A stretch of DNA of 64,000 nucleotides from a candidate division Zixibacteria bacterium HGW-Zixibacteria-1 (GTDB lineage Bacteria; Zixibacteria; MSB-5A5; GN15; PGXB01), in NCBI GenBank assembly GCA_002838945.1, contig PGXB01000007.1, positions 1-64,000 on the forward strand, given 5' to 3'. The position numbers and the translations under genes are program-made. Under the pieces are notes generated by a model, which was not told the origin of the DNA, ran no database searches, and saw nothing but the letters and a program-made list of their open reading frames with translations. Shown here one piece after another: positions 41,850-44,867 of the stretch (its first letter is position 1; the number at the start of each line of letters is the position of its first letter).

Positions 41850-42950
41850 CTATACAGTTGTCATCACATCACGGCGTTTACGCACAATCACGGTTATTGC
41901 GGCCAGCACAAGTAGAATTATCAGCACTAGCAATCCATAGCCGGTTAGTGACGGAAGCCTCCTCGGTCCGGGAGAATTCGACATCGACAGCATGACCTTG
42001 ATTTCCTTTTGGCCTAAAGGTGAAATGGTTCCCAATGACCATTCCATAGCACCGGCGATGCAATCGGGACCAAGGGAATTTCTGTTCAAGAGAACCCGGT
42101 TTTCGACATCCTTATTAAGCCCCGTCGCAGGCCAAATATTACCCCCTGCATCCCGAAAATCAGCGACATCATAACGATTAAAAGGATATAAGGTCGAATC
42201 GACGCTAAATCCAATATATTCCACATTTCCAAAACTGGACTTGGCCCACATACTTATATCCCAGTGGTAATTCTGCTGGTTATACGTCGGAATGAAGGCT
42301 GGATCATATCTGCCTGTGACCTCAGGATCATATTCGTCGCCCGGGTGACCATGCAATAATTGATAGAAATAGACATTGGTCAATGGAAGTGTCGCCGATG
42401 TATTTTTGATTGTGTACGTAACATAGGCGATGCAATCGGTGCTTGGAACAAACAATCCGCTACCTATATTCATGGCCACCGGCCCGTCACATACCAATTC
42501 ATAGTCAATCTGAATTTCCACCTGGGTCATGGCCCTGTCTCGTATCGTCGATGTTCCCGCGCTCTGGTCACCGCTGGTATATGTCGGGCCGGAAACCGGC
42601 TCGAAAGTCTCAGCAGTCCTGTAATAAGGGCAGATCCAGTAATCGGTCAGCCAGGTGGCCTGAGGCGAAGTCTCAATACCATCATAATAAATAGCCGCCG
42701 CCCAGTCGCCAGAGAGCATTTCATGCGAAGGCGTGGAATCCGGATGAAACCAAAGCCAATCCGAGTACCCAAATACATCAACATCAATGGTCCATTCGCT
42801 GCAACCGGCTGGACATGCATAATGTATTTCTCCCGCCCCTTTAGCCTCTTTATCCCTCGATAGGGCCATGTCGGCCTGAAGGGTCACCAACAGCGCCATA
42901 AATATTACAATTACCAATAAAGAATTTCGGTTATTTTTATGAATTCTCAT
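41850..42950 (-). CDS. Secreted protein with CTERM-like C-terminal sorting signal
   Basis: The 366-aa protein has a signal peptide (SLLVIVIFMALLVTLQADMAL). Its mature part is rich in aromatic residues, Asp and Cys (HYACPAGCSEWTIDVDVFGY, WLTDYWICPYYRTAE) with no recognised domain. It ends in LPSLTGYGLLVLIILLVLA plus a short basic tail RKRRDVMTTV. This tripartite end (short motif, hydrophobic helix, Arg cluster) resembles IPTL-CTERM and related sorting signals processed by exosortase-like enzymes. No such enzyme is visible nearby. The surface role is inferred. Confidence 0.65.
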   Translation of the reverse strand: MRIHKNNRNSLLVIVIFMALLVTLQADMALSRDKEAKGAGEIHYACPAGCSEWTIDVDVFGYSDWLWFHPDSTPSHEMLSGDWAAAIYYDGIETSPQATWLTDYWICPYYRTAETFEPVSGPTYTSGDQSAGTSTIRDRAMTQVEIQIDYELVCDGPVAMNIGSGLFVPSTDCIAYVTYTIKNTSATLPLTNVYFYQLLHGHPGDEYDPEVTGRYDPAFIPTYNQQNYHWDISMWAKSSFGNVEYIGFSVDSTLYPFNRYDVADFRDAGGNIWPATGLNKDVENRVLLNRNSLGPDCIAGAMEWSLGTISPLGQKEIKVMLSMSNSPGPRRLPSLTGYGLLVLIILLVLAAITVIVRKRRDVMTTV

Positions 42951-43029: not shown

Positions 43030-43731
43030 CTAATAAATCAAATGATGGGCCTGCCGCGGAGGGGAACGAGGCGAACATCTGAATATCAGGACTCGAGAAA
43101 TGAATACTATTTTTTTATAGCGATAAAAATGAAATGCGACATCTTTCAGATGCTTTTTCTTTTCACTCGATTTATTGAATATATAGTGCAAAAATTCCAG
43201 TAGAATGGCATTTAACAGGATTACGCCGACAGCGAAGACGACCAGACCGAACAATGTGCTGAGGCTGATTATCATAACCGATCCATTATTCTGCGGAAAA
43301 AACACGCTTCCCACTGGGCTGAATTTTTCTATAAATAACTCCTGGGGCAGCCAGGCAAGAGCGACAACCAGCGGATTGGGCCATATAAACTTTTTTATCA
43401 GGCCAAGGGAGAGACCAAAAACGGAAAAGACTATTCCAAGGAACAGCAGCTTTATTATAAATGTCATGGGCGCGATCAACAGTTCCTGCGTCGATACGGC
43501 GCCGACATAACATAACGCCAGAAGCAGCCCCAGTAGAATAGCATCAAAATAATCTGATCTTAAAACTTGCCAGAGAAATGGAATAAAGGCTGCAAATGAT
43601 AGGATAAACAGTTCCGGGATAAGATGAGAAATTGCCAGAAGCAGAGCCGTACTTCCCGAAATTAGGAATAGCGATGGAACTCGTAAAAAACGTCTCTGTG
43701 CGTAATTATAACGCGATTTCTCGACTTGCAT
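43030..43731 (-). CDS. Integral membrane protein resembling the N-terminal half of Lnt
   Basis: The 233-aa protein has seven or so hydrophobic segments (for example SLFLISGSTALLLAISHLIP, AILLGLLLALCYVGAV, LFLGIVFSVFGLSLGLI and LFGLVVFAVGVILLNAILL). The order FIPFLW, PLVVALAWLPQELFIEKFSPVG, then TLFGLVVFAVGV fits the membrane half of apolipoprotein N-acyltransferase, but no nitrilase domain with the catalytic Glu-Lys-Cys follows. It may be a truncated Lnt, a split form, or an unrelated membrane protein. The last ~15 residues are low complexity. Confidence 0.45.
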   Translation of the reverse strand: MQVEKSRYNYAQRRFLRVPSLFLISGSTALLLAISHLIPELFILSFAAFIPFLWQVLRSDYFDAILLGLLLALCYVGAVSTQELLIAPMTFIIKLLFLGIVFSVFGLSLGLIKKFIWPNPLVVALAWLPQELFIEKFSPVGSVFFPQNNGSVMIISLSTLFGLVVFAVGVILLNAILLEFLHYIFNKSSEKKKHLKDVAFHFYRYKKIVFISRVLIFRCSPRSPPRQAHHLIY

Positions 43732-44090: not shown

Positions 44091-44867
44091 ATGCACTATA
44101 TACAAAAATTAGTCGTTGTTTTAGTCGCGTTCTTAATGATTCTTGCAGTGACATGCGGCGACAGCGATAATCCCATTTACAGCGGACAAAATCCATTTCC
44201 CGCGGTCAGCGGCCCCGGCCTGTATATTCCCGATACGACATTCGATTTTGGTTATGTTCCTCAGTTTGGCACCATAAGCCACAAATACCGGATGTATTCC
44301 GTCGGGGATGATACCCTGAATATCCTTCAGATCCGACCCGGCTGAGGCTGCACCAGAGCTCCTTTGGAAAAGGACCAGCTTCTTCCCGGCGATAGCCTTG
44401 ATCTGGAAATTATCTTCAGCTCCAAAGCCTATTATGGGATGGTGACCAAATCACCCGCCATTTACACGAATGAACCTGATTCCCTGATGCCCCAGAAAAT
44501 AAGGCGGATTGTCCTGACCGCAAATGTTTATCGCAGTCTCGATACCACTTACCCGATCAATATAATGCCCCACTTATTCAATATCACGACTCCCGTGAAT
44601 GAAACCGACGACACAATTCCATTTCAAATCAAAAATTTTTCCAGGAACCGGGTCTATATAAATATCGTTGACTACCCGCGGGATTTTTTGAAATTGAGGA
44701 TGCCGGATAGAATCGGCGCCGGGCAAACGGCAACCGGTTTTATTTCCCTTACGCCTCTTGGGCTGACCAGCGAATTTAGAAAATCAATCACGATCGAATT
44801 GAATGGCCCCGGCCGAACCCGCTTTACTATTCCGGTCACGCGGGTACTGCCCGATAGAACACCTTGA
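44091..44867 (+). CDS. Candidate selenoprotein: DUF1573-like lipoprotein with Sec-Gly-Cys motif
   Basis: The frame from ATG 44091 is open to 44867 except for one in-frame TGA at 44343-44345. Read through, it gives 258 aa with residue 85 at the TGA. The N-terminus is a lipoprotein-type signal ending LAVTC (Cys22). Residues ~45 to 130 match the DUF1573 fold: DTTFDFGYVPQFGTISHKY, then IRPG-TGA-GCTRAPLEKDQLLPGDSLDLEI. In DUF1573 proteins this place reads CGCT, so the TGA replaces the first Cys, the usual Cys/Sec exchange of selenoproteins. Frame, spacing and conservation continue perfectly on both sides. A second beta-rich domain follows. The protein is probably periplasmic, lipid anchored and redox active (inference). 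Alternatives are a recent nonsense mutation or a sequencing error. A TTG at 44079 is an alternative start; no clear ribosome binding site is seen. Confidence 0.75.
44356..44381 (+). promoter_or_regulatory. Candidate bacterial SECIS hairpin
   Basis: Immediately inside the reading frame after the TGA, GAGCT pairs with AGCTT and CCTTT with AAAGG, closing on the three-base loop GGA, with a three-base bulge (ACC) on the 3' side. The loop's first G is 20 bases after the UGA. Bacterial SECIS elements are coding-region hairpins with a G at the start of the apical loop at about this distance. SelB binding is inferred. Confidence 0.55.

What the first reader, a model, noticed from the sequence alone, without database searches (positions are those of the whole stretch)
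44091..44867. DUF1573-like lipoprotein with in-frame UGA at the conserved Cys: likely new selenoprotein family member
The reading frame continues without shift across TGA 44343-44345. The context is RPG-[TGA]-GCT, and DUF1573 proteins carry CGCT at exactly this place. Cys-to-Sec exchange at a conserved redox Cys is the classical selenoprotein signature. The result would be a Sec-Gly-Cys pair in a lipid-anchored periplasmic beta-sandwich. I do not know of a characterised selenoprotein in this family.
Basis: partly seen in the sequence, partly recalled or inferred. Interest (0 to 1): 0.92.

Follow-up and report, generated by a model that had tools for sequence, protein, structure and literature searches.

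The report
DUF1573 selenoprotein gene in a Zixibacterium
The internal stop codon in this bacterial secreted-protein gene is almost certainly read as selenocysteine, the 21st amino acid; the protein family was already on the list of predicted selenoproteins, but it is unusually widespread in the phylum Zixibacteria and most copies there carry an odd two-hairpin RNA signal.

Summary
A 258-aa DUF1573 frame (44091-44867, +) runs through TGA 44343-44345, at the first residue of the family's CGCT motif. The Sec reading is strongly supported. The genome has selA-selB, tRNA-Sec (anticodon UCA) and two selD genes, one with its own in-frame TGA. Among 92 distinct related genes in the phylum (Candidatus Zixiibacteriota), the same codon is TGA in 68 and TGC/TGT in 24. 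A covarying hairpin follows the UGA in Sec copies but not Cys copies. In the window gene it is UCCUUU(GGA)AAAGGA, loop 20 nt after UGA, the geometry of the same genome's selD hairpin and unique among 2418 TGAs of the window.

The novelty claim fails. DUF1573 with a 'UGC' motif is listed in the 2022 and 2026 selenoprotein reviews, credited to Zhang & Gladyshev 2007, and NCBIfam NF041425 is named 'OS_HP2 family (seleno)protein'. The window protein is a divergent, probably lipoprotein, variant scoring below that model's cut-off.

An unexpected extra: 65 of 68 Sec genes carry a second hairpin, GCUGUC(GGN)GACAGC, 42 nt after UGA, outside the published 16-37 nt range. The window gene lacks it. Biochemical function is unknown; a periplasmic Sec-Gly-Cys redox site is the best guess.

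The parts
44091..44867 (+). DUF1573 selenoprotein gene: 258 residues with Sec at position 85, stop TGA 44865-44867
44091..44156 (+). signal peptide up to Cys22 (44154-44156), probable lipoprotein attachment site with atypical lipobox LAVTC
   Evidence: other members have a Cys at the equivalent place (VSCGD, LACGD, FACDD, GGCGK, FSCDS)
44232..44483 (+). DUF1573 domain (residues 48-131)
44343..44345 (+). in-frame UGA, Sec85, first residue of the U-G-C-T motif (Cys87 at 44349-44351)
44356..44381 (+). putative SECIS hairpin: core UCCUUU(GGA)AAAGGA at 44360-44374, loop 20 nt after UGA; outer GAGC/GCUU pairs with a 3-nt bulge
   Evidence: geometry of the selD hairpin of the same genome
45117..45434 (+). 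yajC, next gene downstream on the same strand (def and fmt follow); no evidence of co-function

Best explanation
A secreted, probably lipid-anchored, two-domain beta-sandwich protein of the DUF1573 family in a Zixibacterium, in which UGA85 is decoded as selenocysteine by SelB and tRNA-Sec with the help of a hairpin just downstream. The resulting Sec-Gly-Cys motif takes the place of the family's Cys-Gly-Cys. Shown by sequence: the frame, the machinery, Cys/Sec exchange at this codon, the hairpin and its covariation in relatives. Inferred: actual Sec insertion, export, and the role. Most likely (about 60%) the Sec-Gly-Cys pair is a periplasmic thiol/selenol redox centre that cycles through a selenenylsulfide; selenol-based metal binding is the main alternative.
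For: Machinery in the same genome: selA with selB beside it on the same contig, tRNA-Sec with anticodon tca, two selD, one with an in-frame TGA; selA in 122 of 132 phylum genomes. Conservation: TGA at this exact codon in 13 of 14 relatives of the family and in 68 of 92 distinct genes, Cys codons in the other 24; about 40-44% identity continues past the TGA. Sec and Cys copies are interleaved on the tree (14 label changes), including a sister tandem pair in this genome. Hairpin: 11 inferred compensatory double changes at each of two pairs against 5 or fewer for slid partners; synonymous-shuffle z about 20 in Sec and 0.8 in Cys genes. The window hairpin meets the loop, stem, G and spacing rules of the published bacterial SECIS model and has the geometry of this genome's selD hairpin; UGA259, the terminal stop, has none.
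Against: No protein-level evidence. The window gene is on a long branch and its own hairpin has no close orthologues to test covariation. Its folding energy alone is not unusual against synonymous shuffles (z -0.2), and 7% of TGAs in the window have a hairpin of equal score if any spacing of 16-37 nt is allowed. The lipobox is atypical. No operon partner suggests a substrate.
Confidence: 0.93

Rival explanations
1. UGA85 is a true stop or a sequencing or decay artefact, and the gene is a pseudogene or two fragments.
For: Automated annotation without Sec would call a 167-aa ORF from TTG 44364. The window gene is divergent.
Against: Same codon is TGA in 68 independent sequences from many assemblies, and in two other DUF1573 genes of this genome; frame intact for 173 codons beyond; Sec machinery present; no other stop or frameshift.
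Confidence: 0.02
2. UGA is reassigned genome-wide or read through as another residue (e.g. Trp or Cys by a suppressor).
For: The frame is open under any UGA = residue code.
Against: TGA terminates yajC, fmt, rng, tldD-like and prmC genes and this gene itself; the in-frame TGA falls at a redox Cys column, not at random; tRNA-Sec and selA/B/D are present.
Confidence: 0.01
3. The protein contains Sec, but the Sec-Gly-Cys motif serves metal or metalloid binding or capture in the envelope rather than redox turnover.
For: CXC motifs and selenols bind soft metals (general knowledge). DUF1573 has no known enzyme fold; the model is a tandem Ig/ASH-like sandwich.
Against: No neighbouring metal transport or resistance genes conserved with it. 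Sec families are mostly redox (reviews PMC9312934, PMC13188914).
Confidence: 0.25

Closest known systems
DUF1573 domain selenoprotein (UGC motif) listed from the Olavius algarvensis delta-proteobacterial symbiont, OS_HP2 / NCBIfam NF041425
   Same: Same Pfam domain, same Sec-Gly-Cys motif. The 380-aa gene of this genome at C9 scores 98.1 bits against the NF041425 cut-off of 100, so it is the closest match here.
   Different: Window protein scores only 51.7 bits, has a different length and second domain, a probable lipoprotein N-terminus, and sits in Zixibacteria.
Main Zixibacterial Sec-DUF1573 clade (G000 C50 type)
   Same: About 44% identity, same Sec codon, two-domain architecture.
   Different: Those genes occur in tandem with Cys copies and have the second hairpin 42 nt after UGA; the window gene stands alone and has only the first, canonical hairpin.
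Sec-containing SelD of the same genome
   Same: Same SECIS geometry: 3-nt loop starting 20 nt after UGA.
   Different: Unrelated protein.
PDB 2qsv, Porphyromonas gingivalis protein of unknown function
   Same: Fold match and a weak sequence match of the C9 paralogue (E 0.0069).
   Different: The aligned stretch of 2qsv has no CGC motif.

Membership tests
DUF1573 (PF07610) | Pfam gathering score 26.1 bits | tested here: met
   67.3 bits, E 1.2e-18
OS_HP2 family (seleno)protein NF041425 | NCBIfam curated cut-off 100 bits | tested here: not met
   51.7 bits: related, but not a member by NCBI's own cut-off
Bacterial selenoprotein | In-frame UGA aligned with a conserved Cys of homologues | tested here: met
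Bacterial selenoprotein | selA, selB, selC (tRNA-Sec) and selD in the genome | tested here: met
Bacterial selenoprotein | Published SECIS rules: loop 3-9 nt, stem 4-16 bp, G in first two loop positions, 16-37 nt from UGA | tested here: met
   UCCUUU(GGA)AAAGGA, spacing 20; rules from PMC13188914; the model's energy threshold was not tested
Bacterial selenoprotein | Sec present in the protein | not testable with these tools
   needs 75Se labelling or mass spectrometry
Bacterial lipoprotein | Signal peptide with lipobox [LVI][ASTVI][GAS]C | tested here: inconclusive
   LAVTC has T at -1 and A at -3; related members have better boxes, e.g. IVSC in L042

The most novel reading that the evidence does not exclude
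Zixibacterial Sec-DUF1573 genes use a previously undescribed compound SECIS: the GG-loop hairpin that SelB would recognise lies 42 nt after the UGA, beyond the accepted 16-37 nt, and a covarying first hairpin in between brings it within reach of the ribosome. The window gene would then be a variant that moved the recognised loop back to the canonical first hairpin.
Probability: 0.45. Interest if true: 0.62.

Novelty: new member of a known kind. Interest (0 to 1): 0.42.

Why it matters
It adds a phylum-wide radiation (Zixibacteria) to a thinly documented predicted selenoprotein family, with three Sec copies in one genome and repeated Sec/Cys exchange between tandem paralogues, a natural experiment on when selenium is worth its cost. 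Below-cut-off scores mean that standard annotation probably truncates these genes. The long-spacing second hairpin, if functional, would widen the rules used to find bacterial selenoproteins.

Tried and rejected
Single-protein scan of genome contigs found nothing; the alignment scan worked. A viral-contig scan found no relatives. Folding energy against synonymous shuffles was uninformative for most single genes; position-specific stem scoring and covariation were used instead. Neighbourhoods gave no functional partner: the C50-type genes converge with two GWxTD-like ORFs and MacB-like permeases, synteny rather than an operon. PDB sequence search with the alignment gave no significant relative. 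The structure model is confident (pLDDT 93) but Foldseek hits are generic Ig/ASH domains. Zhang & Gladyshev 2007 is not held, so its content is taken from the two reviews. Scripts cut short or with wrong pattern. No report was accepted because fields were missing.

Full report
Observation. The frame at 44091-44867 (+) starts at ATG 44091, passes TGA 44343-44345 as codon 85 in the context RPG-TGA-GCT, and ends at TGA 44865. Read through, it matches DUF1573 (PF07610) at residues 48-131, 67.3 bits. There is no other stop and no frameshift.

Sec machinery. The genome (82 contigs, 96.7% complete) has selA (E 2.8e-123), selB beside it on contig C3, a tRNA-Sec with anticodon tca, and two selD genes, one with an in-frame TGA. 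Organism names from the alignment scan place the relatives in Candidatus Zixiibacteriota. selA is found in 122 of 132 genomes of the phylum, and Sec-type selD is common. A few genomes with TGA copies lack a selA hit (e.g. G012, G025, G068, G083); these are draft assemblies, and I read this as missing sequence.

Conservation of the codon. In 13 of 14 relatives of the same family a DUF1573 gene has one TGA, and translations show PGUGCT at one aligned place. Ninety-two distinct genes could be scored at this codon: 68 TGA, 20 TGC, 4 TGT. On a tree the Sec and Cys labels need 14 changes (clustered, 0 of 500 shuffles as low), and in this genome a Sec and a Cys copy on contig C50 are sisters (identity 94%). 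The own genome has seven DUF1573 genes, three with the TGA: the window gene, one on C50 and a 380-aa one on C9.

RNA signal. Downstream of the UGA, Sec genes share a hairpin at columns 15-20/31-36 (U of UGA = 0). Columns 17-34 are U-A 41, A-U 9, G-C 5 and columns 20-31 are U-A 29, G-C 16; the Cys genes show no such signal. By parsimony on a FastTree tree each of these two pairs has 11 compensatory double changes, while slid partners have at most 5. Column 34 is a second codon position, so amino acids changed along with the pairing. Stem scores exceed synonymous shuffles by z about 20 in Sec and 0.8 in Cys genes; related sequences are not independent, so the z is descriptive. In the window gene the helix is in a shifted register: UCCUUU(GGA)AAAGGA, loop 20 nt after the UGA, and L042 (genome G010) has CGCCUU(UGGAC)AAGGCG with a U-A to G-C exchange at one pair. 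The loop, stem, G and spacing rules of the published bacterial model (PMC13188914) are met. The selD-Sec gene of this genome has GGCCAAA(GUU)UUUGGCC with the same spacing and loop length. This exact geometry with at least six Watson-Crick pairs occurs at 1 of 2418 TGAs in the window, this one; the terminal TGA has no such hairpin. A looser criterion is met by 7% of TGAs, so the strength lies in the match with selD and in the family evidence.

A second hairpin. In one search, 65 of the 68 Sec genes carry GCUGUC(GGN)GACAGC or a near variant with the loop 42 nt after UGA; the exceptions are the window gene, L042 and L092. Forty-six of the 68 lack a canonical hairpin of score 12 or more in the 16-37 nt range. 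Protein-level reading changes with it: Sec genes read LAVGDS or IAVGDS in 64 of 68, most Cys genes read APGDS or other. The GGU loop is also used at spacing 20 in the selD gene of G068. I propose, without experimental support, that hairpin 2 is the SelB ligand and hairpin 1 a spacer in these genes.

Protein. The C50-type protein is modelled as two beta-sandwich domains (pLDDT 93.3); the nearest solved folds are ASH/HYDIN-like Ig domains and 2qsv. The window protein was not modelled itself. It begins with a hydrophobic stretch and Cys22; several other members also have a Cys there, so a lipoprotein is probable. No conserved neighbour suggests a substrate. A redox role is inferred from Sec itself and the CXC spacing.

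Known or new. PMC9312934 and PMC13188914 both list a DUF1573 selenoprotein with motif UGC, citing Zhang & Gladyshev 2007, and NCBIfam has NF041425. Only three held papers mention DUF1573 at all and the one paper with both Zixibacteria and selenoprotein does not mention DUF1573. The window gene is therefore a new, divergent member of a known predicted kind; it is not a member of NF041425 by that model's cut-off.

Noticed in passing
L025-L126 Sec genes, e.g. L052 (G000 C50): 65 of 68 Zixibacterial Sec-DUF1573 genes have a near-invariant hairpin GCUGUC(GGN)GACAGC with its loop 42 nt after the UGA, beyond the published 16-37 nt range, plus a covarying hairpin in between.
   Followed up: partly
G000 C50 (L053), also G007, G013, G014, G033, G070: Tandem arrays of one Sec and one or more Cys DUF1573 paralogues; in G000 the Sec and Cys copies are 94% identical, a recent exchange.
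   Followed up: partly
L054:6523 (G000 C9), L056, L059: A second, ~380-aa DUF1573 selenoprotein subfamily with GS-TGA-GCT, closest to NF041425.
   Followed up: partly
L018 / L019 (G000 C13): Two selD genes: one Sec-type of normal size and one without TGA in a ~736-aa open frame, perhaps a fusion.
   Followed up: no
window 43030-43731 (-): Membrane protein ORF without Pfam match; by eye it resembles the N-terminal part of an apolipoprotein N-acyltransferase.
   Followed up: no
window 41850-42950 (-): Secreted protein with a C-terminal hydrophobic stretch and basic tail, no Pfam match.
   Followed up: no
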